A DNA stretch of 40,127 bases from Actinomycetota bacterium (GTDB taxonomy: Bacteria; Actinomycetota; Coriobacteriia; Anaerosomatales; UBA912): positions 1-40,127 of the forward strand of contig JAGXSC010000042.1 in the NCBI GenBank assembly GCA_018334075.1. The letters run 5' to 3'. Of the stretch, positions 8,797 through 22,360 are shown piece by piece. The stretch's first letter is position 1. The number at the start of each line of letters is the position of its first letter. Made by a program: the position numbers and the translations under genes. The notes under the pieces are model-generated. The model had not been told where the DNA came from, did no database searches, and saw only the letters and a list, made by a program, of their open reading frames with translations.

Positions 8797-11123
8797 AACG
8801 AGGGCCGGAACCTTCGCAGCAACAACGAGCTGGTGACCACGCTCACACTCGAAAGCGCCATCGCCGCTCCCGCCAGCTCTGGACGTAGCAGCCCTAAAGC
8901 CGCCACGGGTATACCAAGAGTGTTGTACCCGAGCGCCCAGAAGAAGTTCTGGTATATCTTGCGCATCGTCCGTTTGGAAAGCTCGATCGCTGTCACCACG
9001 TCTCGAAGATCGTTCTTGATGAGGACTATCTCACCTGTTTCCATCGCCACGTCAGTGCCGGCACCCATCGCGATGCCCACATCCGCCTTTGCCAGCGCTG
9101 GGGTGTCGTTGATCCCGTCGCCGACCATTGCCACCTTCAGGCCCTTGGCCTGCAACCTGGCTACCTCGGCGGCTTTGTGCTCCGGCAGCACTTCTGCCAG
9201 CACATTCTCCGCCGAAATACCCGCTTGCGCGGCGATCGCCTCGGCGGTGCGGCGATTGTCACCGGTGATCATGTAGACGGCCAGGCCCATGCTCCGCAGC
9301 CGCTCCACCGCCTCTTTGCTGTTGCTCTTCAGCGTGTCCGCCACCGCGATAAGGCCAGCAGCTGCGTTGTCAACCGCGATAAGCATCACGGTCTTTCCTT
9401 CGCTCTCAAGCTGCGCGACTCTGTCGGCGAGGGCGGAAATATCGATATCATGGCGCTCCATAAGCTTCCTGTTTCCGAGGAAGACCTTGCGCCCTTCGAC
9501 AACGCCCTCCACACCGTGTCCGGGGATGGCCTCAAACTCTGTGGCCGAATAGTGGGGGATCCCGTTTTTCTCGGCATGCGCAACGATTGCCTCGGCGAGC
9601 GGATGCTCACTCAGGCGCTCCAGGGTAGCGGCCAGGCCGAGTAGCTCCTTGCCATCGGGAGAAGCGATGGTCTCGAACTCGGTCACTACCGGCGTGCCGT
9701 GAGTCAGCGTGCCGGTCTTATCGAAGATGATCGCATTTACCTTGTGAGTGGTCTCAAGAGCCTCTCCGCTCTTTATCAGGATGCCGTTTTCTGCGCCTTT
9801 TCCTGTTCCGACCATTATTGCCGTCGGAGTGGCGAGCCCTAACGCGCACGGGCAGGCTATGACTAGAACAGCGGTCGCCACAAGCAATGCTTTCACAAAG
9901 GGCGTGAACTCACCCATCGCGCCTGGGAAGAAAGTTGGCCCAAGCAGCAGCCAGACCAGAAACGTCACGAGCGCGAAGGCCACCACCGCGGGAACGAACA
10001 CCGCGCTGATCCGGTCGGCGAAACGCTGGACCGGAGCCTTAGAGCCCTGTGCCTCCTCGACAAGCCTGATGATCTGCGCAAGCGCTGTATCAGAACCGAC
10101 CTTGGTGGCTCGAAATCTGAACGAGCCCAGTTTGTTTATGGTCGCTCCGATGACGGTGTCGCCCGTGTTTTTCTCCACCGGAATCGATTCTCCGGTAAGC
10201 ATTGACTCATCGACACTGGAGCGTCCCTCAACGACGATGCCGTCAACCGGGATCTTGTCGCCCGGACGGACCACCACGATATCGCCGACGATGACCTGCT
10301 CGACCGGCACATCGATCTCCTGGCCGCCTCTGACGACCCTCGCCGTCTTCGCCGCCAACCCCATGAGCTTCTTGATCGCGTCACTTGCCTTGCCTTTAGC
10401 TCTAGCCTCGAGCAGTTTGCCGAGGATCACGAAGGTGATCAGCATCGCCGCTACTTCATAAAACATTGGCTCGGCCGCGAACTTCGGAATAAACGTAGCG
10501 GCCACACTATAAAAGTAAGCCGCGCTCGTACCTATCGCGATAAGCGTGTCCATATTGCCGGTACGACGCTTGATCGCATGCCAAAATCCTCGGTAGAACT
10601 GCGCGCCGGCGATAAACTGCACCGGGGTGGTCAAGATAAATCCGATGTACTTGTTCACCATGTACGGATCCCAGGCGCCACCCACATTGTTCGCCAACCA
10701 AGTTGCCACCGCCGCGGGCACCACCATCATGAAAGGGGGTACCATCGCAAATAGCAAAGAGGGCAAGGCAAGCGAAAACGCGAAGATGAACATCGCCTTT
10801 TCTCGCCGGAAGTGCCGCTCTTGCGCTTCGCGCTGCGTGTCAACCGGAGATTGCCCGGTTTCACCGGCGCTGGCCCGCACTGAAGCCTTGTAACCGACCT
10901 TGTTCACGGTCGTGAGCAGTGCGTCGATATCGATCACCGCGGGATCGAATTCGACAGTCGCCGACTCGGTGGCAAGGTTGACAGAGGCCTTCGAGACACC
11001 TGCCGTACCCGCCAGGGTCTTCTCGATCACCGCCACGCATGAGGCGCAGGTCATTCCGGTGACATCAAATACTACTTTGTCTTCTTTTTCGAGACTCTCG
11101 ATCTGTTCGACATTGTTGCTCAT
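8778..11123 (-). CDS. copA: Copper-exporting P1B-type ATPase
   Basis: A 781-aa membrane pump that exports Cu(I) using ATP. One N-terminal heavy-metal-associated domain carries GMTCASC (residues 23-29). The membrane Cu site CPC appears in [15 protein letters not shown], the phosphorylated Asp in DKTGTLTHG, the SEHPLAEA His-Pro motif that marks P1B pumps, and [18 protein letters not shown] in the hinge. The metal class is read from CPC plus the later membrane residues ([18 protein letters not shown] and the following MALSSVSVV). ATG 11123 is preceded by AGGTGA. It lies 11 bp after the cupredoxin gene, so it is almost certainly in the same operon. Confidence 0.96.
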
Positions 11124-11134
11124 CAAATATCACC

Positions 11135-11650
11135 TCACTGCACAAGAATCGAGCCAAAGACCATGTCCATGCCGCACTCAAAACCATAAATTCCCGGCTC
11201 TAGAGGCGGAATAGCGACGGTCTTGGGGCCGCTCGTCAGATCCGCATAGAATCCGAGATCGTTGCTTTTCACTTCGGCGAAGCACCCGGCGCCTTGCCCA
11301 AAGGTAATCTCGGCAGGCACTCCGGCCTTCAGCCTGATGAGGTTCGGCGAATATCCCGCACTTGTATCGACGGCGATGCGCTGAACGCCATCGCTATCCA
11401 AGACAGCGGATCCTTCGATCGTCTCGCCGCTACCGGCTCCGCAGCCCCCGCCCGTTCCGCAACCCCCGCATGGCAAAGCTTCGCTAGAAGCCGCCTGGGT
11501 GGGCAGCGCCGAGCCAGCGGCTCCTTCGGAAACGCCCCTGCCCTGGGCGAAACGATAGGACATCAGAAGTGCGAGCACGATCAAGATCGCCACAAGGGCA
11601 TATCTCACAAACTGAGCATCACCTGAGGTGACGGCTTTTTGATTACTCAT
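11135..11650 (-). CDS. Membrane-anchored cupredoxin with Cys-rich linker
   Basis: A 171-aa protein with an N-terminal membrane helix (about residues 16-31), then a linker holding CGGCGTGGGC (Cys 61, 64, 70), then a cupredoxin-type domain (about 85-171) ending GFECGMDMVFGSILVQ. Cys159 with the following Met residues resembles a copper or nitrosocyanin-like soft-metal site; the usual His ligands are not obvious. Probably it binds copper outside the membrane and buffers it or hands it to CopA or SafE (inference from neighbours). ATG 11650 has GGAG about nine bases upstream; an open frame continues nine codons further. Confidence 0.8.
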   Translation of the reverse strand: MSNQKAVTSGDAQFVRYALVAILIVLALLMSYRFAQGRGVSEGAAGSALPTQAASSEALPCGGCGTGGGCGAGSGETIEGSAVLDSDGVQRIAVDTSAGYSPNLIRLKAGVPAEITFGQGAGCFAEVKSNDLGFYADLTSGPKTVAIPPLEPGIYGFECGMDMVFGSILVQ

Positions 11651-11695
11651 AACGATCAGTCTCCTGTTCCAAAACATTGTTCATCGAATTTGATT

Positions 11696-12979
11696 TTACA
11701 ACCCGCCGATTAACTGGCCTGTAGCTACCGCCAGGACCAGTAGCGCGGCTATTACAACCAGCTCATTGACGGTAAACCCGAAATACCTGACTGGCTCGGC
11801 TCCGCCAGTCGCGGACTTTCCTACGTCGCCACTGGCGTTTCCCGCCACCGCTAAGGCACGCTGGCGGTATGTCATCCAGCCCAAGGCGGCGGCGACTAAA
11901 ACGAACAATCCTACCAACAGCGGAGATACTCCCGTCTGAGCCCCAGCCTGACCAGCGACTATACTCCCGGGCATCATTCCCATGCCGCAAGTGAGCGTAT
12001 AGTTGCCCGGAGCGACCGGGGGTAACTCGACCACTGTTGTGGCAAATGGCTCGAGATCGACCAGAACCCCCAATTGAGGGATGGCGAGCTGATCCGAGCA
12101 CGGATTGTCCTCCTGCCTGTCAACAACCAGGCGTACCGGCTGATTGACAGGAATTGCAAGTGCCGAGGGCTCAAAGCGCACATCCGCTATTACCAGCGGG
12201 ATCTCCACAACTCCATCGGGGCCGGCTACAAAGCCGCCGGCGGGTCCCTCGGCGGGTCCTCCGAGTACGGATTGCGTGATCGTGTGAAGCGTCACTGGCG
12301 AACCGAGAAGCATGGCACCACGGTTGAGATAGGTGAGTCCAAAGAGCAAAACGACGATGGCCAGCACCACCATGACCCGCGCTTTCAGCTTTGCGGGAAT
12401 CATACTCGACGCAACCCCGAATCCGAACATGAGCGGGGCGGTTCCAAGGCCAAAGGCCATCATCCCAAGCGCGCCTGTCAGCGGATTCCCAGATGCAATG
12501 GCCTGCAACTGCGCGGCGATCAAGGGCGCGCAGGGCATAAGTCCTGTAAGCAGACCAAAGAGAATCGGAGCGCTCATCGGCGATTGCCCGTGCTCGGCGT
12601 TGGATATCGCCTTTCGCCTGACCCCTCTCAGAGCTGAGACCAGAAACTTAGGTGGACGCGGGGTCAGCCGGGCAGCCCATGGAAACCGGCCGGTCATCCC
12701 CAGCGCCAGCACGATCATGAAACCGCCTGCCAACACCATTACATACGGACGGACGCCCTCCAGATCAAAGAATCCGCCGATGGCGCCTAGTGTCAGGCCG
12801 ACGATCATATAGCTCAGTATCTTGGCCGACTGGTAAGCGAAATTCGGCACAAGTTTGTCTTTCCACGTTGCGCCCTCTGTTTCCTTGAGGGCGTATGTGA
12901 TCACCATGGGTCCACACATGGACACACAGTGCAGGCTCGTAACAAGTCCAAGAACGAGCATAGGAACGAATATTTCCAC
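11696..12979 (-). CDS. SafE/UreH-type transporter fused to a cupredoxin domain
   Basis: A 427-aa fusion. The N-terminal part (about 1-230) is a six-helix SafE/DsbD-like membrane domain, with SLHCVSMCGPM (Cys18, Cys22) in helix 1 and TGLMPCAPL in a later helix, the pattern of DsbD_2/urease-accessory-type proteins. A cupredoxin-like domain follows (about 240-350), containing DNPCSDQL and ending TCGMGMMPGS, which closely resembles the neighbouring cupredoxin. Two more membrane helices finish the protein (SPLLVGLFVLVAAALG and ELVVIAALLVLAVATG). Known relatives of this membrane domain carry thiols or Cu (CcoH/DsbD families). GTG 12979 has GGAGGAG seven bases upstream. Copper transfer across the membrane is the likely job. 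Confidence 0.82.
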   Translation of the reverse strand: MEIFVPMLVLGLVTSLHCVSMCGPMVITYALKETEGATWKDKLVPNFAYQSAKILSYMIVGLTLGAIGGFFDLEGVRPYVMVLAGGFMIVLALGMTGRFPWAARLTPRPPKFLVSALRGVRRKAISNAEHGQSPMSAPILFGLLTGLMPCAPLIAAQLQAIASGNPLTGALGMMAFGLGTAPLMFGFGVASSMIPAKLKARVMVVLAIVVLLFGLTYLNRGAMLLGSPVTLHTITQSVLGGPAEGPAGGFVAGPDGVVEIPLVIADVRFEPSALAIPVNQPVRLVVDRQEDNPCSDQLAIPQLGVLVDLEPFATTVVELPPVAPGNYTLTCGMGMMPGSIVAGQAGAQTGVSPLLVGLFVLVAAALGWMTYRQRALAVAGNASGDVGKSATGGAEPVRYFGFTVNELVVIAALLVLAVATGQLIGGL

Positions 12980-13031
12980 GGATTTACTCCTCCATCAGTC
13001 GTACTACAGTAAACGAACTGATCGAGAAGTA

Positions 13032-13358
13032 TCAGATTCTAAGTCGCGTGGGCAACCTTTCGAGCGGCGGTGGCTCGGCGTATGGAAACTGCGCCATGCT
13101 TATACTAAAGCGCAAGCCGCCATTGGCCATCGCGCCGGGAGAGAACAGGGAGAAAACGACCACGAAAAGAAGCATAAAGGTAACCAGGGCTCCGACAGGA
13201 ATGACCTCCACCATCAGGTGCTCGGAGCATCCAAAAGGAATACCCATCAGTCCGTAGATCGCGCAATTCGGCATCAAGCATGGAGGCGCCAGTGCGGCAA
13301 ATACCGCAATCACCAGGACTGCGGCGAGTACGGCTATTATGGCTGCCGACCTGTACAT
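13032..13358 (-). CDS. Small two-helix membrane protein with three cysteines
   Basis: A 108-aa protein of unknown family, first in the copper cluster. It has two membrane helices (SAAIIAVLAAVLVIAVFAAL and IPVGALVTFMLLFVVVFSLF). Between them is an extracytoplasmic loop carrying PPCLMPNC and GIPFGC, a Cys/Met-containing patch that could bind copper. ATG 13358 has GGAGGA about ten bases upstream. It is 52 bp from the SafE fusion and runs the same way. The metal role is inference from position and residues only. Confidence 0.6.
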   Translation of the reverse strand: MYRSAAIIAVLAAVLVIAVFAALAPPCLMPNCAIYGLMGIPFGCSEHLMVEVIPVGALVTFMLLFVVVFSLFSPGAMANGGLRFSISMAQFPYAEPPPLERLPTRLRI

Positions 13359-13395
13359 AAAACGGCGTTCCTCCGGATGCCGAAATTTCAATCTA

Positions 13396-13410
13396 TTGCG
13401 TTTTGCGCAA
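13396..13410. promoter_or_regulatory. Inverted repeat upstream of the copper cluster
   Basis: TTGCG-N5-CGCAA (13396-13410), which contains the palindrome TTGCGCAA, lies about 40 bases before the first copper-cluster gene. It matches no copper-regulator box that I know (CsoR, CueR, CopY). It is a candidate operator by position. Confidence 0.35.
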
Positions 13411-13428
13411 ATACTATGCCAACAGGAG

Positions 13429-13450
13429 AAGGGCCGGTCTCCCGGCCCTT
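13429..13450 (-). terminator. Hairpin terminator after the LPxTG gene
   Basis: AAGGGCCGG and CCGGCCCTT form a perfect 9-bp stem with a TCTC loop, 25 bases past the LPxTG gene stop. The stem is flanked by TTTCTC on the plus side; the minus strand has only TTCTCC after the stem. It separates the surface-protein gene from the copper cluster. Confidence 0.6.
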
Positions 13451-13474
13451 TCTCAAACTACTCTGGTCGTCAAC

Positions 13475-14248
13475 TTAGGTTTTCGTGGCCCAGCGCCTGA
13501 GACCGTAGCCTGCAGATCCCATGAGCGTTGAGAGCATCGCCAGGAGCCAACCTGTGCCGCCCGTGAAGGGGAGGAACGGGTCCTCGTCGCTCTCTGTGAG
13601 CGGGAGGATCGGGTCCTCGTCTTCGACCGGAGGCTCTTCATCGATTGGAAGCTCTTCGTCTATCGGAAGCTCTTCCTCATCAACCGGGGGCTCCTCGTCT
13701 ACAGGAGGTTCCTCATCGACTGGAGGCTCTTCCTCGTCGACTGGGGGCTCCTCATCAACCGGGGGCTCCTCGTCTACAGGGGGTTCCTCATCGACTGGAG
13801 GCTCTTCCTCGTCAGGGGGCAGATAGTCCCATGACACATGGCTTAGCACGAGCTTTCCATCGCTTGAGTTCACAACCACGGAGGCCGACAGGAGTACATC
13901 ATGGCCACTTGTACCAACATAGAAGTGCTGGGTCCTGCCAGCGCCAACAGAGATGCCTGTCGCTGTTCTGGTTCCACCCGATGCAAAGGTTACAGTAAGT
14001 TGCCCTGCTGGAGACCCCTCATCAAGTTGGTTTAGGACAAAGTGCCAAACTACTGGATCTGCCAATCCGCCGTCATCAGACTCATTGTTGAAAGTCTCGC
14101 TGCTTGCGCCCACATGCGATCCGTGAAGCTGGATCGTAGAAAGCCCTAAGGCTACCCCGGCGAACAGCAGCAAAAATACCATTGCTGCCACCATGGGTAG
14201 CGATGCCAGAGTGAGCTTACTGAAACTTCTTTGTACTGAAGTCTTCAT
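13475..14248 (-). CDS. LPxTG-type surface protein with acidic Pro-rich repeats
   Basis: A 257-aa secreted wall protein. It has a long N-terminal signal (hydrophobic core AAMVFLLLFAGVALGL), then a compact domain of about 110 residues holding THFYVGTSG-type strands (a CARDB/DUF11-like look, family not recognised). A low-complexity region follows with about ten EEPPVD/EELPID units (roughly residues 148-215). The end has LPFTGG, a membrane helix and the basic tail RRWATKT, a standard sortase signal. Sortase would link it to peptidoglycan; the repeats act as a stiff spacer. ATG 14248 has AAAGGAGG eight bases upstream. Function of the exposed domain unknown. No sortase gene is in the window. Confidence 0.85.
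   Translation of the reverse strand: MKTSVQRSFSKLTLASLPMVAAMVFLLLFAGVALGLSTIQLHGSHVGASSETFNNESDDGGLADPVVWHFVLNQLDEGSPAGQLTVTFASGGTRTATGISVGAGRTQHFYVGTSGHDVLLSASVVVNSSDGKLVLSHVSWDYLPPDEEEPPVDEEPPVDEEPPVDEEPPVDEEEPPVDEEPPVDEEPPVDEEELPIDEELPIDEEPPVEDEDPILPLTESDEDPFLPFTGGTGWLLAMLSTLMGSAGYGLRRWATKT
13600..13815. repeat. Nested 15/75-bp coding repeats in the surface-protein gene
   Basis: Codon-level repeats of roughly 15-18 bp encode EEPPVD/EELPID. A larger 75-bp block (start near 13681, again near 13756) recurs nearly unchanged, including its synonymous codon choices, so the array has grown by recent duplication. Confidence 0.75.
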
Positions 14249-14298
14249 GATGCTCGCCTCCTTTATCTATCAATCGGTGCTTTCCTTTCACTTAATAC

Positions 14299-14345
14299 TT
14301 ACCCAAAATTACACTTTACTAATCATTTTACTTAGCTCTTACTAA
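14299..14345. promoter_or_regulatory. Phased TTACTWA direct repeats
   Basis: TTACTWA occurs at 14316, 14328 and 14339, about one helical turn apart, with a diverged TTACCCA at 14299. They lie 51-97 bases upstream of the LPxTG gene start, in an otherwise gene-free AT-rich stretch (14249-14408). Phased direct repeats are typical of response-regulator or activator sites. The same TTACTA core recurs at 36066. Confidence 0.4.
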
Positions 14346-14408
14346 TTATGATTAAATGCCCCGACCCTTAGCGCAAGACCCTTGATTATTGTGGATGCAT
14401 TACGGATC

Positions 14409-14606
14409 GCCTTTAGCGGTAAGCGTGAGCTTTGCCTCATCTTCAACACTAAGCGATGACGTTTGCTTATGAGTTGACACAGGGGTAGCACACAAAATTA
14501 ACAGAAACATTAAGCGATAGAAGCATTGACGCGCGGGGAGGGGCCATGACATGTTCTTTTAGAGGGCGACTTTTTCCAATCGGGCGAAGAGATAACTGCG
14601 TGGAAA
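14409..14606 (+). repeat. Leader repeat copy R1
   Basis: About 198 bp nearly identical (by eye over 90 percent) to 16828-17027. Its first 33 bp (14409-14441) match the 3' part of the HemW-like gene. TTGACA (14474-14479) and a later TTGACG give promoter-like boxes ahead of the secreted-protein gene. Both copies stand directly upstream of an island gene block. Confidence 0.7.
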
Positions 14607-14647
14607 TGGTTGTTGAAGAATAATTTTTAAAGGGGGCGAAAAAATCA

Positions 14648-15370
14648 ATGAAGAAGAAAGTCCGTACTGTGTCGGTGTTGCTAGCGGGGATTCTTTTAAT
14701 GTCTAGTACCTTTGCGACTCCGATAGCCGCCGGGCAGGGAAATGGCAGGGGGCAAGAAAAACAACGTGCGCAGCAAGTTCAGTATCTTGATGCAGAGATA
14801 CAAGTGATTGACGGTCAGCCAATGCTTAAGGTTGAAACAAAAGAAGGCTATGCATCCTATGAGTTCCCTTGGCCGGAGGTAGCGATTGTCGATGGCAGGG
14901 AGGTTACCTTGGAAAGACAGGGTAATTACTTTTTGCTCCAAACAGATGATGGTACCGAAAAAGTCTCCATTGAGGACTTTCAGGTGGCACTGGTAGCCGG
15001 ACAATTGATGTTAGTAAAAAGCGTGAATCCTTGGTGGACGGTACCAGTCGCAGTTGCTAAGGCTGCACTAATAGCCGCAGGAGTGCCAGTAACAATGGCA
15101 AACTTAAGCGCTGCGACCCTATTGATAGCGGCAGGTAAAAGTGTGACTGCGATAACAGTCCGACGGGTAGTATTAGCCCAGACCGCAATAGCTGCCGGAG
15201 TTGCAGTGGATAGGGCTGTTTCGACGTATAATCTTCTACGCGCAACCTATAGATGGATAATAGGTACTTGCATGTCGTGTGGCAGACTACGCACGCCCGG
15301 TGGTAGTTTTGGTGATTTTTATAGTAGCGCGTGCGCCCGAAGGCTTGGCGGTCAGCGCTCTTTTCCCTAG
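14648..15370 (+). CDS. Secreted protein with hydrophobic core, unknown family
   Basis: A 240-aa protein I do not recognise. A signal peptide (KKKVRTVSVLLAGILLMSSTFATPIAAG) is followed by a polar stretch rich in Gln, Glu and Lys (about 30-125), then a long Ala/Val-rich hydrophobic region (about 126-205, around VPVAVAKAALIAAGVPVTM and VLAQTAIAAGVAVDRAV), and a Cys/Gly-rich basic tail (GTCMSCGRL to the end, with a third Cys near the end). This signal, pro-region, hydrophobic-peptide layout resembles SdpC-like or other membrane-active peptide precursors, but no family match is claimed. ATG 14648 has AAGGGGG upstream. It is AT-rich compared with the flanking genes and is followed by a hairpin and a membrane-protein gene. 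Confidence 0.7.
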   Translation: MKKKVRTVSVLLAGILLMSSTFATPIAAGQGNGRGQEKQRAQQVQYLDAEIQVIDGQPMLKVETKEGYASYEFPWPEVAIVDGREVTLERQGNYFLLQTDDGTEKVSIEDFQVALVAGQLMLVKSVNPWWTVPVAVAKAALIAAGVPVTMANLSAATLLIAAGKSVTAITVRRVVLAQTAIAAGVAVDRAVSTYNLLRATYRWIIGTCMSCGRLRTPGGSFGDFYSSACARRLGGQRSFP

Positions 15371-15398
15371 CCTTTAGATGTTTCTCTAAGAATAATGG

Positions 15399-15440
15399 CT
15401 CATGGGCCGCCCTGGTGGTAGCCCATGAGTGTATCATTTT
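15399..15440 (+). terminator. Hairpin with T-rich tail after the secreted-protein gene
   Basis: CTCATGGGC (15399-15407) pairs perfectly with GCCCATGAG (15421-15429), with a 13-base loop, and the next bases include ATTTTTAATTT. This is a good intrinsic terminator. The next gene starts only 34 bases beyond the stem, so partial read-through may set the ratio of the two products. Confidence 0.65.
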
Positions 15441-15463
15441 TAATTTGGGAGTATTGATTTCTT

Positions 15464-15919
15464 ATGGATACAGAAGATTTGATACTTACATATATAGTGA
15501 TATGCGCGGTGTTTGGTTTGATATTCTTTGTCCCAAGTTTTCTTGGACAAAACGCCTGGTTATGGCTAAATAGCCGTTTTTTATGGCCACAGGACGATAT
15601 AAGAAAACCCAGAGCCAAGATCTCTTTCTCCTCCTCATTGGACGAGTTTCCGTTCTGGAGCATTCTTGCCGATCTTGTGATAACTAATACAATACTTGTA
15701 GTACTGTGCGAATTGGATATATTCAATATCCCTCCAGGAGAATTACCCCTATCAGATTATATTGCTATAGCTGTAGAGACACAGCAATTACACGACCCGG
15801 AGCATGTCATGGTTCGTATCACTATTATGGCAACAGTATATTTCATTGCTGGTGCTGTGAACCAATGGTTGCGTGAAAGAAAAAGATTGAAAAGACTGAA
15901 GGCTAGTTTTGCTGAGTAA
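15464..15919 (+). CDS. Three-helix membrane protein, island family (copy 1)
   Basis: A 151-aa membrane protein with helices near residues 7-29 (LILTYIVICAVFGLIFFV), 66-87 (ILADLVITNTILVVLCELDIF) and 119-139 (RITIMATVYFIAGAVNQWL), and a basic C-terminal tail (RERKRLKRLK). It is paralogous to the gene at 17571: both have QQLHDPEHVM/QRLQEDPVHLM just before helix 3, a SRxxxP/RLFPS segment after helix 1, and matching bases before the start (GGAG about 12 bases upstream of ATG). It follows the secreted-protein gene. Possible immunity or processing partner (inference). Confidence 0.72.
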   Translation: MDTEDLILTYIVICAVFGLIFFVPSFLGQNAWLWLNSRFLWPQDDIRKPRAKISFSSSLDEFPFWSILADLVITNTILVVLCELDIFNIPPGELPLSDYIAIAVETQQLHDPEHVMVRITIMATVYFIAGAVNQWLRERKRLKRLKASFAE

Positions 15920-15963
15920 TTAAACGCCCCCCCCCGAGCCAGATGTACCTCGCGAAAACAAGC

Positions 15964-16100
15964 TATAAGCGGGTAAAAGGTCACCTTTTATTCCCGAGAG
16001 TTTGGCCATCTCCGCGTCGTAAAGCAACATCACGCATGTCTGACTGGGAGAAGTTGAAGATCATGTCGACGTTGAGCGGGCGAAACTTGCTGGCGGCTCG
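15964..16100 (-). pseudogene. Internal scrap of the HemW-like gene
   Basis: This stretch aligns by eye with about 18710-18846 of the intact HemW-like gene, including CATCTCCGCGTC and GAAGATCATGTCGACGTTGAG, but it has indels and no open frame. It lies after a run of nine C (15927-15935) and just ahead of the decayed membrane-protein copy. It keeps the same orientation as the intact gene. Confidence 0.7.
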
Positions 16101-16153
16101 TCAGAAGAAAAGGGGCACCAGATTCGTACGTTTCTAGGTAGAGGAGGATTTTT

Positions 16154-16252
16154 GTGCCGAACCCTATATTGCCGGTAACGACGGACCCCGTAGTGGCGGT
16201 AATAGCATTTATTGCCTTATGGATGCTGCATTCCTACATAGTTCGCAAATAA
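16154..16252 (+). CDS. 32-residue membrane peptide, truncated head of the island family
   Basis: GAGGAGG at 16141-16147 sits six bases before GTG 16154, which opens a 32-codon frame: a short lead, one hydrophobic helix (VVAVIAFIALWMLHSYIV) and RK before TAA. Its TDPVVAVIAFIA aligns with YDPVIDLLAVIGFI of the gene at 17127, and homology continues past the stop, so this is the start of a broken copy. The strong ribosome site means the peptide could still be made. Confidence 0.5.
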   Translation: MPNPILPVTTDPVVAVIAFIALWMLHSYIVRK

Positions 16253-16425
16253 GACCGCAAGGGCACTGTTTCCCTCTTTATTTACAAAGCCGTTGGTTCT
16301 ACGATGGGGGCAAGAATACATTTTCGTATTTCCGCTGAATTATAACTCTATTTTTATTGGCCGATTTGCAGCCCTTCTTTTTTCGGCTGGAGATCAAATC
16401 TCCGTTCACAAGGAAGTTGCGAATC
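16253..16425 (+). pseudogene. Rest of a decayed copy of the 17127 gene
   Basis: The bases CTGTTTCCCTCTTTATTTAC (from about 16266) match the coding bases around LLFPSLCTKP of the 17127 gene. A later GGCCGATTTGCAG...TTTTTCGGCTGG stretch matches its helix 3 (FIGRFIVVLFFSW). Stops and frameshifts interrupt the frame, and the part for helix 2 is shortened. Confidence 0.65.
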
Positions 16426-16439
16426 GGAGGGGACTGGAT

Positions 16440-16745
16440 AAAAGGCCTTACTCTGGTGGTGCTTTATTTGTAGGCTTTCTGCTGCTAGTTATCCCAGAGA
16501 GGCTTGGACAAAAAGTCGGCATTTGGGCTGTCGCGCGACTATTTCCGTCATAGCCGCAGGGCAGACAGGGCGGACCACCGTCTATCAGGAGACTATCTGG
16601 CTGGTTGTGGGTTGCATCTGTGTTTATTGCCGTAGTTGCAGTTGAAGGCATTTTTCATTATTGGTTTTGTAGGTAATTTTCTTAGTAGTTGGCATCGTTT
16701 CACAAAAAAGAAGCAAAACAGCTCAGATCCAGCTTCTGAAAAGAT
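16440..16745 (+). pseudogene. Decayed copy of the 17571 membrane-protein gene
   Basis: It matches the 17594-18025 segment at its start (LTLVV/ARLFPS region: GGGCTGTCGCGCGACTATTT), middle (ACTATCTGGCTGGTTG) and end (CATTTTTCATTATTGGTTTT, CATCGTTTCACAAAAAAGAA). A stop follows AVARLFPS at 16551-16553, and about 130 bp between helices 2 and 3 is missing. It ends by joining directly to the HemW-like 3' scrap. Confidence 0.75.
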
Positions 16746-16746
16746 A

Positions 16747-16860
16747 GGGTAAAGACTCTCTTGCCTGGTCGCGAACGCTGTTCACGCTCACGAAAAACTG
16801 CCGCACCATCGCGATCAGCAGGTATCTGCCTTTGGCGGTAAGCGTGAGCCTTGCCTCATC
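16747..16860 (-). pseudogene. 3' scrap of the HemW-like gene
   Basis: These 114 bp match 18127-18240 without gaps and with about eight mismatches by eye. The reading frame of the scrap is still open and encodes LTLTAKGRYLLIAMVRQFFV and SVNSVRDQARESLP, nearly the same as the intact protein. Weak protein-level similarity (SVEDEARL versus DVDDEVRL) continues past the DNA match, hinting that the scrap came from a diverged homologue. Confidence 0.8.
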
Positions 16861-17027
16861 TTCAACACTAAGCGATGACGCTTGCCTATGAGTTGACACA
16901 CAGGGGTAACACACAAAATTAACAGAAACATTAGGCAATAGAAGTATTGACGTGCGGGTCGGGGCTATGACATGTTCTTTTAGAGGGCGACTTTTTCCAA
17001 TCGGGTGAAGAGATAACTGCGTGGAAA
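16828..17027 (+). repeat. Leader repeat copy R2
   Basis: Second copy of the leader at 14409-14606, including TTGACA at 16893-16898 and a two-base insertion after it. It overlaps the end of the HemW-like 3' scrap, and the junction between scrap and leader is the same in both copies. It precedes the pair of membrane-protein genes at 17127 and 17571. The following 100 bp hold a 7-bp inverted repeat (TTTCCAC/GTGGAAA) and no gene. Confidence 0.7.
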
Positions 17028-17126
17028 CGATTTTAGCTGGGCATTTTTCAATACGCCCTGACGGTTTGTGTGCATTTTCCACGGTATCCTTGTTTTATTC
17101 GGTGGAAATAACCATGCTTTTGAGGG

Positions 17127-17552
17127 GTGCGAATTTTTGAAGGATATGATCCCGTGATCGACTTGCTAGCAGTAATTGGGTTCATTGTCTTAGGGTTATT
17201 TTTTTGGGGCATATTTCATGTACTTATTCCCACTTATCTGGCAAATAAAGCTGCGAAGCTACTATTTCCCTCTTTATGTACAAAGCCAGTGGATGACCGA
17301 TTTTGGCACTTTTTTGTTTTCCCTCTTCCGCTGCTACTTATCATATCTCTATCGCTTTTACACTTCGGGTTAGATCTTGACTTGCAAATACCAACGTGGT
17401 TCCCATGGGCTCCTGAGGGTTTGCACCATATGTATCACAGATTTGCGCCCTCAGTGCCAGTTGCCGTGTTTATTGGCCGGTTTATAGTGGTGCTTTTCTT
17501 CAGCTGGCGGATGAAAATTAAAGATAGCAGCTCACAGGGTGCATTGCCTTAG
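17127..17552 (+). CDS. Three-helix membrane protein, island family (copy 2)
   Basis: A 141-aa membrane protein with helices at about 11-35 (LLAVIGFIVLGLFFWGIFHV), 61-83 (FVFPLPLLLIISLSLLHFGL) and 112-130 (VPVAVFIGRFIVVLFFSW). It shares with the other members the segment KLLFPS after helix 1 and a basic C-terminal end. The frame opens at GTG 17127; GTG 17154 with AAGGA nine bases upstream is an equally good start. Strongly AT-rich codon use. It is 18 bp ahead of the next family member, so the two are likely co-translated. Function unknown. Confidence 0.68.
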   Translation: MRIFEGYDPVIDLLAVIGFIVLGLFFWGIFHVLIPTYLANKAAKLLFPSLCTKPVDDRFWHFFVFPLPLLLIISLSLLHFGLDLDLQIPTWFPWAPEGLHHMYHRFAPSVPVAVFIGRFIVVLFFSWRMKIKDSSSQGALP

Positions 17553-17570
17553 TTAGGAGCGTTGATTCTT

Positions 17571-18056
17571 ATGGAAACAATAGGTCTGATACTCCTTACT
17601 CTAGTGGTGTTTTTGCTTGTGGCCCTTTTGCTGATGGTTACCCCAATAGAGCTTGGGCATCAAGGCGGAAATTGGGCTGTCTCGCGACTCTTTCCGTCAT
17701 GGCCGCCAGGCAGACGGTGGTACGACGAGCTACCGCTCAGGAAACTATCTGGCTGGTTGCGGGTTGCACCTGCAGTTATCGTTTTAGCTATGGCTCAAGC
17801 AGTGTTCGATAACTTTATTGCTGAGGAACCTAGCCCGCTAGGCGCCCCCTACCTTATCTTTACATCGTTGCAGGAGCAGCGACTACAAGAAGACCCTGTG
17901 CATTTGATGATTTACGGCATCCTTTTAGCTACGGCATTTTTCATTATTGGTTTTGTAGGTACTTTTCTTAGTAGCTGGCATCGTTTCACAAAAAAGAAGC
18001 AAAGCAGCTCATATCCAACTTCTGAAAAGCCGTACTTGAATTCTGATGCTAAATAG
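17571..18056 (+). CDS. Three-helix membrane protein, island family (copy 3)
   Basis: A 161-aa membrane protein with helices near 4-26 (IGLILLTLVVFLLVALLLMV), 67-88 (VAPAVIVLAMAQAVFDNFI) and 121-142 (MIYGILLATAFFIIGFVGTF), then a Lys/Ser-rich tail. SRLFPSWPPGRRW follows helix 1. ATG 17571 is set by comparison with copy 1 (AGGAG then a matching TTGATTCTT spacer); TTG 17562 is also open. A decayed copy is at 16440. It ends 29 bp from the convergent HemW-like gene. Function unknown. Confidence 0.7.
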   Translation: METIGLILLTLVVFLLVALLLMVTPIELGHQGGNWAVSRLFPSWPPGRRWYDELPLRKLSGWLRVAPAVIVLAMAQAVFDNFIAEEPSPLGAPYLIFTSLQEQRLQEDPVHLMIYGILLATAFFIIGFVGTFLSSWHRFTKKKQSSSYPTSEKPYLNSDAK

Positions 18057-18084
18057 CAAGACGTCGTCAAAAGCATGATTCCTC

Positions 18085-19374
18085 TCAGCATTTTCCCTCG
18101 CCGAAAAGCAACGCGCGCTCCTCGGCGGGTAAAGACTCTCTTGCCTGGTCGCGAACGCTGTTCACGCTAACGAAGAACTGCCGCATCATCGCGACCAGCA
18201 GGTATCTACCTTTAGCGGTAAGCGTAAGCCTTACCTCATCGTCTACGTCAAAAGCACCGTTCATGCGCAGGAATGCCATCTCAATGGGCAGGGCCCGATC
18301 GATCGCCACCCCAAAATCATCGGCAAACTTACGCTTGTCCAGCGAAAGACCGAACAGCTCCATGAGAATCCTGTAGCGCATTCTCGATCCGCGAGAAAAA
18401 CGCCTCGTCTGCGCGATAGAGGTGCCGTGAGAATCAATCCGGCGGATATAGTCATCGACCGAGAATGTGCTCACATATAGCGCTCCGCCAAGGTAGGAGA
18501 AAACGCCGCTCCCGACCCCGACGTACTCCTCATAATCCACGATGTACTCGTCGAGCATGCCTTTTCCCGTATGAGAGAATGTCCACGCGCTGGCAGGCGT
18601 GAACTCTGGGGCCAGCTTTTCGACTATCGTGTGATAGTAGAGAGCCTCACGCTCGTAGCTCACCGCCCCCACCGTGCGCCTGAGTGAATCCTCCACCACC
18701 GGCGAGGCCATGAGCGGGTAGAAGGTCGTCTGGTTCACTCCCGAGGCCTTGATCATCTCCGCGTCATGAAGAAGCATCTCGCGTGTCTGGCTCGGGAAGT
18801 TGAAGATCATGTCGACGTTGAGAGAGTGGAACTTGCCGGCGACCCAGCGCAAGCGCTCAAGTATCTCTTCACTCGAGCCGTATTTCTCGTAGCGATCCAT
18901 CTGCTTGAGCAGCGAGTCGTCAAAGCTCTGGACCCCTACGCTGAATCGATCGACACGCGACACCAAAGGATCGACGACCTCCGGGATCAAATGATTCGGA
19001 TTACTCTCCGAAGAAACCTCCCGGATATCAAAGAGTGACTTGGCGAGATCTATCGTCTCGCACAACTCGTCCACGAGCATCGTAGGAGTTCCGCCGCCGA
19101 TGTACATCGAAGTGCATCGATATCCCCGCTCGGCCACCATACGTATCTCTTCTCGCATGCGGCGAAAGTACTCGCGCGCGCGGCTCTCCTCGAAGGGGAT
19201 CCTGTTAAACGAGCAGTACGGGCACAGCTTTGAGCAAAAGGGTACGTGTGCATAGAGCAGGTATTTGCGCGCGACGTCCGGCTCCGGCAGGGCTTTTCCA
19301 TCGAATCGCTTTAGCTTCAGCAGATGGCTCGCCGAATACTGCATCACTGTGGAGATCAGGCGCTCGGCGATCAT
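18085..19374 (-). CDS. HemN/HemW-like radical SAM protein
   Basis: A 429-aa radical SAM enzyme of the coproporphyrinogen oxidase-like family. YLLYAHVPFCSKLCPYCSFNR carries the CxxxCxxC cluster site with the extra family Cys-x-Phe; MYIGGGTPTML binds SAM, and RFSVGVQSFDDSLLKQMDR is typical of the family. HemN makes protoporphyrinogen anaerobically, HemW inserts heme, and HutW/ChuW degrade heme; the sequence alone does not separate these. Its ATG overlaps the purD stop (ATGA), so the two are coupled. Pieces of this gene are scattered in the neighbouring island. Confidence 0.82.
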   Translation of the reverse strand: MIAERLISTVMQYSASHLLKLKRFDGKALPEPDVARKYLLYAHVPFCSKLCPYCSFNRIPFEESRAREYFRRMREEIRMVAERGYRCTSMYIGGGTPTMLVDELCETIDLAKSLFDIREVSSESNPNHLIPEVVDPLVSRVDRFSVGVQSFDDSLLKQMDRYEKYGSSEEILERLRWVAGKFHSLNVDMIFNFPSQTREMLLHDAEMIKASGVNQTTFYPLMASPVVEDSLRRTVGAVSYEREALYYHTIVEKLAPEFTPASAWTFSHTGKGMLDEYIVDYEEYVGVGSGVFSYLGGALYVSTFSVDDYIRRIDSHGTSIAQTRRFSRGSRMRYRILMELFGLSLDKRKFADDFGVAIDRALPIEMAFLRMNGAFDVDDEVRLTLTAKGRYLLVAMMRQFFVSVNSVRDQARESLPAEERALLFGEGKC

Positions 19375-20663
19375 GATTTTGCGAGCGTTTCGGTATCGCC
19401 GAGAGAGGCACGGCGGCCGATGTCCGTGCGATAGGACTTTCCTTCAAAGCTGATCAGCTCCACCGCTCTATATGCTCGCTGCCGAGCCGCTGTAAGATCA
19501 TGTCCGACCGCGGTCACGTTGAGAACTCTTCCGCCGGCCGTCACAAGCTCTCCGGCCTCATTCAACGCAGTTCCCGCGTGATAAACCCTCACGCCTTCGA
19601 TCTGCTCGGCCGCCTCGATGCCGGTTATGGGCTTGCCCGTCTCGTACTCGCCCGGATACCCGCTGCTAGCAAGCACTACGCTGACAGCCCAATCATCGCT
19701 CCACGCAATCTCGGCGTCCTCAAGTTCGCCCTGCGCACAAGCCAGCATCACCTTCGCCAGATCGCCAACCATTCGAACGAGTATCACCTGCGTCTCCGGA
19801 TCCCCGAATCGGGCGTTGAACTCAAGAACCCTCGGACCCTCCGCCGTCAGCATGAACCCGCCATAAAGTACTCCCCTGTAGTCGATACTTTCTTCACGGA
19901 GCGCTGAGACGGTCTTTTCCATGATCGCCAGCATTTGAGCGTGCTCGGCCGCAGTGACCGCGGGCACCGGGGAGTACACGCCCATTCCCCCGGTGTTTGG
20001 CCCCAAGTCACCATCGAAAGCACGTTTATGGTCCTGGGCCGGAGGCATAGGTATCATCGTGCGGCCATCCGTGAACACCAGCAGCGAGCATTCGGGGCCC
20101 TCAAGGTACTCCTCGATGAGGACCGTTGAGCCCGCGCTACCGAAGCGTCCACCGAAGCAATCATCTATGGCGTTTCGCGCTGTTTCAACGTCGGAAGCGA
20201 CAATAACGCCTTTACCGGCGGCTAGCCCATCAGCTTTCACCACGACTGGAGCGCCGACCTTCTCCAGATAGCCCAAAGCCGTATCCCTGTCGGTAAACGC
20301 CGATGACACCCCCGTAGGAATCCCATACTTGAGCATGAGGTTCTTGGCGAATGCCTTGCTGCCCTCCATCATCGCACCTGAGGCTCCCGGGCCGAAAACG
20401 GGTATTTTTGCCTCACGGAGAACGTCGGCCACTCCCGCCACAAGCGGAACCTCCGGCCCGATCACCACAAGCTCGACACCGTTATCTTTCGCAAATGCCG
20501 CTACCTGTGTTCCATCTTCGATGTCCAGCTCGACGTTTTCAGCCAGCCGAGCGGTTCCCGCGTTTCCAGGCGCCGAAAAAATGCCTGTAACCAGGGGTGA
20601 CTCCGCGAGTTTCGCCACGATCGCGTCTTCACGGCCTCCGCCGCCCAGCACAAGAATTCGCAT
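19371..20663 (-). CDS. purD: Phosphoribosylamine--glycine ligase
   Basis: Second step of purine synthesis: it joins phosphoribosylamine and glycine with ATP. This 430-aa ATP-grasp enzyme shows the N-terminal GGGGRE motif, VVIGPEVPLVAGVAD, FGPGASGAMMEGSKAFAK, VVKADGLAAGKGV, PPAQDHKRAFDGDLGPNTGGMGVYSP and EFNARFGDPETQ. ATG 20663 has GGGAGA upstream and starts at the conserved MRILVLGGGG; the open frame runs nine codons further. The usual GREHA motif reads GREDA here. It is the first gene of a two-gene unit with the HemW-like enzyme. Confidence 0.96.
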   Translation of the reverse strand: MRILVLGGGGREDAIVAKLAESPLVTGIFSAPGNAGTARLAENVELDIEDGTQVAAFAKDNGVELVVIGPEVPLVAGVADVLREAKIPVFGPGASGAMMEGSKAFAKNLMLKYGIPTGVSSAFTDRDTALGYLEKVGAPVVVKADGLAAGKGVIVASDVETARNAIDDCFGGRFGSAGSTVLIEEYLEGPECSLLVFTDGRTMIPMPPAQDHKRAFDGDLGPNTGGMGVYSPVPAVTAAEHAQMLAIMEKTVSALREESIDYRGVLYGGFMLTAEGPRVLEFNARFGDPETQVILVRMVGDLAKVMLACAQGELEDAEIAWSDDWAVSVVLASSGYPGEYETGKPITGIEAAEQIEGVRVYHAGTALNEAGELVTAGGRVLNVTAVGHDLTAARQRAYRAVELISFEGKSYRTDIGRRASLGDTETLAKS

Positions 20664-20707
20664 GATGATCTCCCGTAAGACAGTAGACAAGTGAGCAAGC
20701 GTTCCCG

Positions 20708-20713
20708 ATTATA
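20708..20713 (-). promoter_or_regulatory. Perfect -10 box before purD
   Basis: TATAAT on the minus strand lies 45 bases upstream of the purD ATG, in the divergent gap to the winged-helix gene. At 17-18 bases further upstream, only a weak -35 (CAGGTC/TCAGGT) is seen. Confidence 0.45.
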
Positions 20714-20843
20714 CCGCAGCGACCCGAGCTGACCTGAACCGCGCGAAATAATCGCAGCGAACAGGTGACATGCCTCGGCGCTTGGGGAATACTTATCGCG
20801 TACGTCAAGCGAGCTAATCGCACGAGCTGAAAGGAAAATCTCC

Positions 20844-21023
20844 ATGGAGCCTCAGGATCAGGTTTTGGAAGCGATGCGCGCGGCCGGCGAGCCGTTGAGT
20901 GCAGGCCAAGTAGCCGAGAGAACCGGCCTTGATCGCAAGGTCGTGGACAAGGTCATGGACGCACTCAAGAAGAGTGGTGCGATCGAGTCGCCCAAACGCT
21001 GCTACTGGCAGCCAAAGGCCTAG
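20844..21023 (+). CDS. Small winged-helix DNA-binding protein
   Basis: A 59-aa protein: MEPQDQVLEAMRAAGEPLSA, then GQVAERTGLDRKVVDKVMDA and LKKSGAIESPKRCYW. The three-helix layout (AGEPLSAGQVAERTGLDRKVVDK) is a MarR/ArsR-like helix-turn-helix, with a short wing after GAIESPKR. One Cys is present near the end. ATG 20844 has AAAGGA about nine bases upstream. The stop overlaps the arsC start (TAGTG), so the two are co-translated. It may regulate arsC or modulate another regulator; it is too short for a separate effector domain. Confidence 0.75.
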   Translation: MEPQDQVLEAMRAAGEPLSAGQVAERTGLDRKVVDKVMDALKKSGAIESPKRCYWQPKA

Positions 21024-21457
21024 TGACTGGAAAGGCAGCGCCCGTGGCACCGCGCAAGCGTGTGCTGTTTGTTTGCGTCGAAAACTCGAACCGCAGTCAG
21101 ATGGCCGAGGCATTCGCCCGCATCCTCGGCGGAACAGCTGTCGAGGCGTATAGCGCTGGTTCTCGGCCTTCAGGTGTGGTCAATCCGAAAGCGATTGAGG
21201 CCATGCGCGAGCTAGGATACGATCTCGCGGCACACGGATCGAAATCGCTCGACGAGCTTCCGGATGTGGAGTTTGATTTTGTGGCTACGATGGGTTGCGG
21301 AGATGCCTGCCCGCTGGTGCGGGCCAGGAAGCGGGCCGACTGGTCTATCCCCGACCCCAAGCACTTGCCTCCGGAAGAGTTCCGGGCAGTGCGCGACTTG
21401 ATCCGGGACAAGGTGCGATCTGCTTTGGAGGAGTTGGGAGTATCTAGCGCCCAGTGA
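21023..21457 (+). CDS. arsC: Arsenate reductase, low-molecular-weight phosphatase fold
   Basis: A 144-aa thioredoxin-type arsenate reductase. The phosphatase loop CVENSNRSQMAEAF (CX5R) sits near residue 18, the late Cys pair appears in ATMGCGDACP, and DWSIPDPKHLPPEEF carries the general-acid Asp. It reduces As(V) to As(III) with Cys relay to thioredoxin; a tyrosine phosphatase role is less likely given the second Cys pair. No arsB or acr3 exporter is in the window. The GTG start overlaps the winged-helix stop; a second start at a later in-frame GTG (21044) is possible. Confidence 0.92.
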   Translation: MTGKAAPVAPRKRVLFVCVENSNRSQMAEAFARILGGTAVEAYSAGSRPSGVVNPKAIEAMRELGYDLAAHGSKSLDELPDVEFDFVATMGCGDACPLVRARKRADWSIPDPKHLPPEEFRAVRDLIRDKVRSALEELGVSSAQ

Positions 21458-21487
21458 GCCCCCGCGTACGGATCGCGTGTCTCAAGA

Positions 21488-22360
21488 TCACGGCAAGGCT
21501 GACTGCTCCCAACCCCGAAAGACAGGGCTCCACCTGGCAAGCCGCTGGCTCATTATCTCGATAGCTTCAGGGTTGTTGTCGACCAGCAAAGCTCGGCGGT
21601 CGTTTGATAAGGCCGCCTCGCCGGTGCTTCCGCTTCCCGCAAAGAAGTCCACCACGAGATCGCCAGGGTTCGAGTGGACCGTAATGATCCGATTCAAGAT
21701 ACCCAGAGGCTTTTGGGACGGATACCCTGTTCTCTCGGCCCCGTTCGTCGGCACGATCGTGTGCCACCACGTATCTGTTGGAGTCTTGCCTCGGGCGGCT
21801 TTCTTCTCCTCAACCAGGCCGGGCGCCATGTAGGGTATCCGCTCTATCTCATCGTAATTGAAGGTGTAGTTCTCGCAATCCGCCACATACCAAAGGATGG
21901 TGTCATGCTTTGCGGGCCACTTCCGCTTGGGGCGTCCGCCGTAGTCATACGCCCAGATGATCTCGTTCATAAAAGCGTCTCTTCCAAACACTCCGTCCAT
22001 AAACACTTTGACGTAGTGCGCCTCCCGATAATCCAAATGGACAAAGATGGCTCCGTGCGGTTTTAGCAGACGTCGGGCCTCGATCAGGCGCTTTCCTATA
22101 AACTCCAGATAGTCTTCGAAAGTGTCACCGTATTCCATGGCGGAAACTGTAACGCTGGAGTACGTTTCACCTTTGAATCCGCGTCTAGTCCCCGAAGGGT
22201 CCTTGCGGACACGCTGACTTCTGAGCACCTGACGCTTGCCGGTGTTGAAAGGTGGATCGATGTAGATCAGATCGCATATTTCCGAGGGTAGCGAGCTGAT
22301 TACATCCAGGTTTTCTCCGAAAAAAACCTCCAGGTCCGATCGATTCTCTAAAGAGCTCAG
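21488..22360 (-). CDS. Site-specific DNA methyltransferase (N6/N4 beta class), probable CTG start
   Basis: A 290-aa orphan DNA methyltransferase. The catalytic motif IDPPFNTG (motif IV) is near residue 36 and the SAM loop DFFAGSGSTGEAAL near residue 244, the order of beta-class N6-adenine/N4-cytosine enzymes. GYPSQKPLGILNRII is the usual motif X neighbour. The first conventional start (GTG 22228) lies after the catalytic DPPF, so it cannot give an active enzyme; the frame upstream has no ATG, GTG or TTG back to the TAA of the preceding gene. CTG at 22360 has AAGGAGG eight bases upstream and is the likely start. No restriction partner is seen. Confidence 0.85.
   Translation of the reverse strand: MSSLENRSDLEVFFGENLDVISSLPSEICDLIYIDPPFNTGKRQVLRSQRVRKDPSGTRRGFKGETYSSVTVSAMEYGDTFEDYLEFIGKRLIEARRLLKPHGAIFVHLDYREAHYVKVFMDGVFGRDAFMNEIIWAYDYGGRPKRKWPAKHDTILWYVADCENYTFNYDEIERIPYMAPGLVEEKKAARGKTPTDTWWHTIVPTNGAERTGYPSQKPLGILNRIITVHSNPGDLVVDFFAGSGSTGEAALSNDRRALLVDNNPEAIEIMSQRLARWSPVFRGWEQSALP

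What the first reader, a model, noticed from the sequence alone, without database searches (positions are those of the whole stretch)
14249..18060. AT-rich island: secreted hydrophobic protein plus an array of paralogous three-helix membrane proteins
Seen: a signal-peptide protein with a long hydrophobic core and Cys-rich tail (14648-15370), followed by three intact (15464, 17127, 17571) and two broken (16154-16425, 16440-16745) members of one membrane-protein family. Shared marks are three helices, a KLLFPS/SRLFPS-like segment after helix 1, a Q-x-L-x-x-D/E-P-x-H segment before helix 3 in two of them, and a basic tail. The island has lower GC than both sides. Known: multiplied immunity-like membrane genes beside a secreted membrane-active peptide are a bacteriocin or SDP-type layout. 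Inference: an unnamed secreted-effector and membrane-partner system.
Basis: partly seen in the sequence, partly recalled or inferred. Interest (0 to 1): 0.78.

Follow-up and report, generated by a model that had tools for sequence, protein, structure and literature searches.

The report
Secreted toxins with swappable killing ends
This stretch of a bacterial genome looks like a small weapon kit: a secreted toxin protein whose front half is kept and whose killing end is exchanged together with a matching self-protection gene, a known general plan built here from protein families that have not been described.

Summary
The island is real and the toxin-immunity idea holds up, with one correction. 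The 240-aa secreted protein (S) belongs to a small family found in this genome, one related actinobacterium and four Bacillota MAGs. Its signal peptide and beta-rich N-terminal domain are conserved. Its C-terminal part is exchanged, and the neighbouring gene changes with it: hydrophobic, Cys-tailed ends sit beside the three-helix membrane protein M (4 of 5 cases, one a broken toxin), "SGQRF/HAGLRM" ends beside a soluble protein (3 of 3), other ends beside other membrane proteins or ABC transporters. A 5' cassette (promoter, ribosome site, signal peptide; about 245 bp) is 93% identical between two loci encoding unrelated mature proteins. S's N-terminal half evolves slowly (dN/dS 0.18), its C-terminal half fast (0.81). 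Best reading: a Sec-secreted polymorphic toxin with cognate and orphan immunity genes; the type A end probably depolarises membranes, as SDP and CDI ionophores do. Correction: the 17127 protein is not detectably in the M family (4.0 bits, no better than shuffles). The array grew by duplications carrying pieces of the flanking coproporphyrinogen-oxidase-like gene. Toxicity is unmeasured. Families are new; the plan is known.

The parts
14498..14555 (+). Promoter-like region of S: TTAACA (14498), TTGACG (14526), G-rich spacer, TGACAT/CATGTT about 14547-14555; the decayed form of an 11-bp-repeat TTAACA box kept in the Bacillota relatives
   Evidence: alignment of 14 upstream regions; TTAACA x3 at 11-bp spacing, 9 bp before TTGAC, in six Bacillota loci against 0.8 expected by chance
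14510..14755 (+). Shared 5' cassette: promoter, ribosome site, signal peptide and Gly-rich linker; 93% identical at G000:C7, where an unrelated mature protein follows, and 94% at C64
14648..15370 (+). S: 240-aa Sec-secreted protein; signal peptide about 1-28, beta-rich domain about 44-124, short hydrophobic helices about 134-204, tail with CxxC...C (208, 211, 229); proposed type A toxin
   Evidence: family alignment
15464..15919 (+). M: 151-aa three-helix membrane protein, proposed cognate immunity protein of S
   Evidence: M homologue directly downstream of type A S in L022, L026 and L042; profile
15962..16095 (-). Fragment copied from inside the flanking coproporphyrinogen-oxidase-like gene (79% to 18707-18841)
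16230..16425 (+). Decayed copy of N
   Evidence: 77% to 17226-17287 and a second short match
16446..16743 (+). Decayed copy of M (17571 type)
   Evidence: 77% to 17594-17772 and 95% to 17933-18029
16747..17027 (+). Repeat: 3' end of the radical-SAM gene (92% to 18127-18246) joined to S's upstream region (93% to 14409-14606); no S gene follows, N does
17154..17552 (+).
17571..18056 (+). M2: 161-aa three-helix membrane protein of the M family, proposed orphan immunity gene; homologue in C19 (59% aa, dN/dS 0.97)
18085..19374 (-). Flanking radical-SAM gene (coproporphyrinogen III oxidase family protein, NF006385), source of the repeated fragments; boundary of the island

Best explanation
The island encodes a Sec-secreted polymorphic toxin and its immunity array. 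Shown by sequence: S has a signal peptide, a conserved beta-rich N-terminal domain and a C-terminal part that differs between family members, and the neighbouring gene changes family with the C-terminal part. Inferred: S is exported by Sec into the envelope or medium; its N-terminal domain carries or targets it; the type A end (short hydrophobic helices plus a CxxC...C tail) inserts into the membrane of competing bacteria and dissipates the membrane potential. M, in the producer's membrane, binds the inserted end and blocks it. N, M2 and the two broken copies are left from earlier S-partner units added by duplication at the 3' end of the flanking radical-SAM gene; intact ones are kept as protection against kin toxins. 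New toxin types arise when the promoter-plus-signal-peptide cassette, or the longer front half, is joined to another toxin end that brings its own immunity gene.
For: C-terminal type and partner change together. Type A beside M: window, C1 (L022), Clostridium MAG (L026) and a broken Dethiobacter copy (L042). Type B beside soluble ImmB: C60 (L017), Dethiobacter (L027) and Bacillota HKB214 (L029). Type C1 beside ImmC1: L043 and a toxin-tail remnant in L029. Type C2 beside ImmC2: L041 and L044. Type E beside an ABC transporter: C7. Leader swapping in DNA: 248 bp at 93% between C42 and C7, then no similarity. Rate contrast: S N-half dN/dS 0.18, C-half 0.81; M2 0.97 with an intact frame (neutral chance of no stop 0.04). 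M and S co-occur in 3 of 4 M genomes of about 420. Known parallels: SdpC/YitM with variable hydrophobic ends and specific membrane anti-toxins (PMC6818787), CDI ionophores with membrane immunity proteins (PMC11630599), effector displacement leaving immunity arrays (PMC5361080).
Against: No toxicity or protection has been measured. No library or fold match for S, M or N. The AlphaFold models are of low confidence (pLDDT 68.5 and 66.5), and five aligned sequences are few. The G003 type A-like S sits beside an ABC-2-type permease, not M. The M-like gene in G001 stands alone. Some loci are related by descent, so partner concordance counts are not independent. dN/dS near 1 could also be relaxed constraint. 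Membrane depolarisation is argued from hydrophobicity and a membrane partner only.
Confidence: 0.78

Rival explanations
1. S is a precursor of an SDP-like peptide: only the hydrophobic C-terminal segment, cut out after export, is the toxin, and M is its membrane immunity protein. The front half is a propeptide.
For: SdpC and YitM have a conserved front and a variable hydrophobic end, and SDP is cut from the C-terminal hydrophobic domain (PMC6818787). S has the same gross layout and a hydrophobic end of similar position.
Against: SdpB, needed for SDP maturation, is not found above cut-off in any of six S genomes. The same front half also carries type B ends, which are not hydrophobic peptides.
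Confidence: 0.2
2. The island is a decaying graveyard: an inactive toxin cluster kept open by chance, with M and N drifting neutrally.
For: Two copies are broken, N and M2 have dN/dS near 1, and several S copies elsewhere are truncated or end at contig ends.
Against: S N-half dN/dS is 0.18. The M2 frame is intact at 20% divergence (neutral no-stop chance 0.04). Intact S and M pairs occur in two phyla.
Confidence: 0.08
3. S and M form a non-toxic envelope or signalling pair (for example a secreted pheromone or surface protein with a membrane receptor).
For: No activity has been measured; the N-terminal beta domain is unknown.
Against: Exchange of C-terminal ends together with unrelated partner families, orphan partner arrays, and an ABC transporter of lantibiotic-protection type beside the C7 member are usual for toxins, not for such pairs.
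Confidence: 0.1

Closest known systems
Sec-exported polymorphic toxin systems (Zhang et al. 2012, PMC3482391)
   Same: Conserved N-terminal part, exchanged C-terminal ends, adjacent partner gene that changes with the end, polyimmunity arrays
   Different: Short proteins (220-265 aa, one of 377) without repeats or a recognised processing peptidase; the N-terminal beta domain matches no known domain in the libraries searched; partner families match none either
SdpC/SdpI and YitM/YitQ of Bacillus subtilis (PMC6818787)
   Same: Signal peptide, conserved front, variable hydrophobic C-terminal end, specific membrane anti-toxin
   Different: No SdpB maturation gene found, no sequence match to SdpC or SdpI, Cys-tail motif CxxC...C, and the same front half is also used for non-hydrophobic ends
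CDI ionophore toxins and their CdiI membrane immunity proteins (PMC11630599)
   Same: Helical membrane-active end paired with a small, fast-changing membrane immunity protein
   Different: Not a CdiA protein; short secreted protein of Actinomycetota and Bacillota; three-helix rather than two-helix immunity protein
Immunity gene arrays by effector displacement in Vibrio cholerae T6SS (PMC5361080)
   Same: Old immunity genes retained after the effector is lost or replaced; toxin-tail remnant beside its immunity gene (L029)
   Different: Not a T6SS; repeats derive partly from a flanking metabolic gene

Membership tests
Polymorphic toxin-immunity systems | Conserved N-terminal region joined to different C-terminal ends | tested here: met
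   A/B ends after about residue 130-170; D after about 69; C1, C2, E after about 35-50
Polymorphic toxin-immunity systems | Adjacent gene whose family follows the C-terminal end | tested here: met
   A-M 4 of 5, B-ImmB 3 of 3, C1 2 of 2, C2 2 of 2; loci partly related by descent
Polymorphic toxin-immunity systems | Export signal | tested here: met
   N-terminal signal-peptide-like segment in all members with an intact start; judged from sequence, no dedicated predictor was run
Polymorphic toxin-immunity systems | C-terminal end is toxic and the partner neutralises it | not testable with these tools
   needs expression experiments
Polymorphic toxin-immunity systems | C-terminal end belongs to a recognised toxin domain family | tested here: inconclusive
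   type A none; type B DUF4258 E=0.2 and DUF7723 E=0.005, both below cut-off; type D DUF6973 26.7 bits against 27
SdpC/SdpI (SDP cannibalism toxin) | Sequence match of the secreted protein to the SdpC family | tested here: not met
   no NCBIfam or Pfam match to such a family
SdpC/SdpI (SDP cannibalism toxin) | SdpB maturation protein present | tested here: not met
   TIGR04033 below cut-off in six S genomes; control B. subtilis rings
SdpC/SdpI (SDP cannibalism toxin) | Immunity protein of the SdpI family | tested here: not met
   none of nine M/N proteins matches SdpI in Pfam
CDI ionophore toxins | CdiA carrier and CdiB partner | tested here: not met
   S is a 240-aa protein with a signal peptide and one small domain; no such genes among the ORFs of 11000-21500
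CDI ionophore toxins | Dissipation of target membrane potential | not testable with these tools
   needs a depolarisation assay

The most novel reading that the evidence does not exclude
A so far undescribed class of short Sec-secreted polymorphic toxins, defined by a new N-terminal delivery domain, in which a portable promoter-plus-signal-peptide cassette has spread between Actinomycetota and Bacillota (at least three source genomes appear, by their record names, to come from serpentinite sites) and has been joined to at least six unrelated toxin ends, most bringing their own immunity family, including the three-helix M proteins.
Probability: 0.5. Interest if true: 0.68.

Novelty: new variant of a known kind. 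Interest (0 to 1): 0.56.

Why it matters
It would add a compact secreted weapon family with a new delivery domain and several new immunity families to the repertoire of Actinomycetota and Bacillota. It also shows end swapping at DNA level in two steps (leader only, or leader plus domain), with the promoter travelling along. If the record names are read rightly, several relatives live in alkaline serpentinite groundwater, where antagonism between bacteria has hardly been studied; the S/M pair gives a concrete test.

Tried and rejected
Filing N (17127) in the M family: rejected, 4.0 bits, no better than shuffles; hits to N are circular because N was in the profile. SDP membership: rejected. A structured leader RNA in the shared 5' cassette: rejected, fold z-score 0.17. 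Phage or plasmid origin: no viral-contig or plasmid matches and no convincing PHROGs match. Defence system: no PADLOC match. Fold search of S in the PDB: nothing meaningful, best E 0.11. The first single-sequence genome scan with M2 found nothing. Type B as a DUF4258 nuclease: only suggestive (E=0.2), left open. Literature search for the TTAACA box gave nothing usable.

Full report
Observation. The window is contig C42 of a 1.89 Mb, 78-contig genome. S (14648-15370) has a signal peptide, a beta-rich part (about 44-124) and short helices (134-143, 150-161, 168-188, 193-204) in a low-confidence model (pLDDT 68.5). Its only cysteines are 208, 211 and 229, in the tail. The three membrane genes each have three hydrophobic helices. 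The broken copies at 16230-16425 and 16446-16743 are decayed copies of 17127-type and 17571-type genes.

Correction on the family. A profile made without the 17127 protein gives it 4.0 bits, the same as its shuffles, while true members left out one at a time score 47 (G001), 79 (15464) and 106 bits (L026). So there are two families: M (15464, 17571, one broken copy) and N (17127, one broken copy). N and M2 travel as a pair: the same pair stands in C19. N probably starts at 17154.

The island holds pieces of the flanking radical-SAM gene (coproporphyrinogen III oxidase family): 15962-16095 matches 18707-18841, 16747-16866 matches 18127-18246, and 14410-14447 matches 18209-18246. S's upstream region is repeated at 16828-17027 (93%), but there it leads into N, not into a toxin. 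The simplest reading is an S-N-M unit inserted or duplicated more than once at the 3' end of this gene, with S lost from the second unit and an older N-M pair decaying. C64 and C19 carry the same pieces around an S start and an N-M pair.

Relatives. S homologues: C1 (65%), C60 (52% over the front), G003 = UBA912 (43%); then a Clostridium MAG, a Dethiobacter MAG and Bacillota HKB214 by a scan of 84,980 genomes. Later, more leaders were found in these Bacillota and in G411. The family is rare: 2 of 400 genomes of the window's class, 4 of 98 in the class of the Dethiobacter MAG. None in viral contigs or plasmids. The CROMO record names suggest the Coast Range Ophiolite and HKB suggests Hakuba, both serpentinite sites; this rests on the names and my own knowledge (the Hakuba paper, does not name HKB214).

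Ends and partners change together. Type A (hydrophobic helices, CxxCG...GGxFGDxxSSxC tail): window, C1, L026, and a frameshifted copy in L042, all followed directly by M. G003 has a related tail with four Cys and is followed by an ABC-2-type permease. Type B (SGQRF...HAGLRM...WNW end): C60, L027 and L029, each with a soluble ImmB family; L027 also has an M gene after its ImmB. L029 has three ImmB copies, then the tail of a type C1 toxin and its ImmC1 gene, the pattern described for displaced effectors in Vibrio (PMC5361080). Types C1 and C2 share only the leader and have their own small membrane partners. Type D (L047, 377 aa) ends in a region just under the DUF6973 cut-off. Type E (C7) has an ABC transporter whose ATPase resembles lantibiotic-protection ones. 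Several of these loci are related by descent, so the counts are not independent trials.

DNA evidence of swapping. Window 14510-14755 is 93% identical to C7 over 248 bp: about 138 bp upstream, the signal peptide and part of the linker; beyond that nothing matches. The upstream region is also alignable with Dethiobacter (75% over 319 bp), so promoter and leader have moved together between phyla. The aligned promoters share TTGACG and a TATGATATATT-like -10 with a G-rich spacer. In six Bacillota loci three TTAACA-like hexamers at 11-bp spacing end 9 bp before TTGAC; 6 such hits in 176 kb, all at these genes, against 0.8 expected. From my own knowledge this resembles PhoP (or WalR) boxes, hinting at phosphate control; it is decayed in the window and I could not confirm it from the literature.

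Selection. Between window and C1, dN/dS is 0.18 for S residues 1-127 and 0.81 for 128-240. For N and M2 against C19 it is 0.93 and 0.97 with open frames; an M2 frame with no stop after that many random changes has a chance of 0.04. Fast change in the toxin end and partner with a held front half is what toxin-immunity coevolution gives, though relaxed constraint cannot be excluded for N and M2.

Mechanism. Shown: export signal, modular ends, partner change, arrays. Inferred: Sec export, delivery by the front domain, membrane insertion and depolarisation by type A, block by M in the membrane. Parallels: SDP and YIT toxins with specific membrane anti-toxins (PMC6818787) and CDI ionophores with membrane immunity proteins (PMC11630599). 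Not members: no SdpC/SdpI match, no SdpB, no CdiA/B. Filed as a new variant of polymorphic toxin systems (PMC3482391), with toxicity untested.

Scores. Confidence 0.78 for toxin-immunity with a membrane-active type A end as the most likely mode (the depolarisation step alone about 0.55). Interest 0.56: new families and a clear test, within a known plan.

Noticed in passing
L026:282, L027:3895, L029:7843, L041:2225, L043:1691 (-), L044:315: Three TTAACA-like hexamers at 11-bp spacing, 9 bp before TTGAC, upstream of the toxin genes; looks like a PhoP- or WalR-type box, suggesting phosphate or cell-wall stress control.
   Followed up: partly
L029:6507-10121: Three ImmB genes around a type B toxin, then the bare tail of a type C1 toxin and its immunity gene: a polyimmunity locus with a displaced-toxin remnant.
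   Followed up: partly
L018:5417-7914: 220-aa secreted protein with the window's leader but an unrelated mature part, followed by an ABC transporter of lantibiotic-protection type; possible separate bacteriocin family.
   Followed up: partly
L047:1827-2957 (-): 377-aa protein with the S front, then a region just under the DUF6973 cut-off; IS21-like genes beside it.
   Followed up: partly
window 13475-14248 (-): Secreted protein with EEPPVDE repeats and an LPFTG-like sorting end next to the island; no family match.
   Followed up: no
L022:7849-8550, L017:3-527, L044:2108-3321, L048:467-1620: Transposase genes or fragments (HTH_38/IS30-like, IS66-like, IS3-like) next to several toxin loci.
   Followed up: no
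L021:7660-8142 (-): Orphan M gene in related genome G001, which has no S: possible stand-alone immunity gene.
   Followed up: partly
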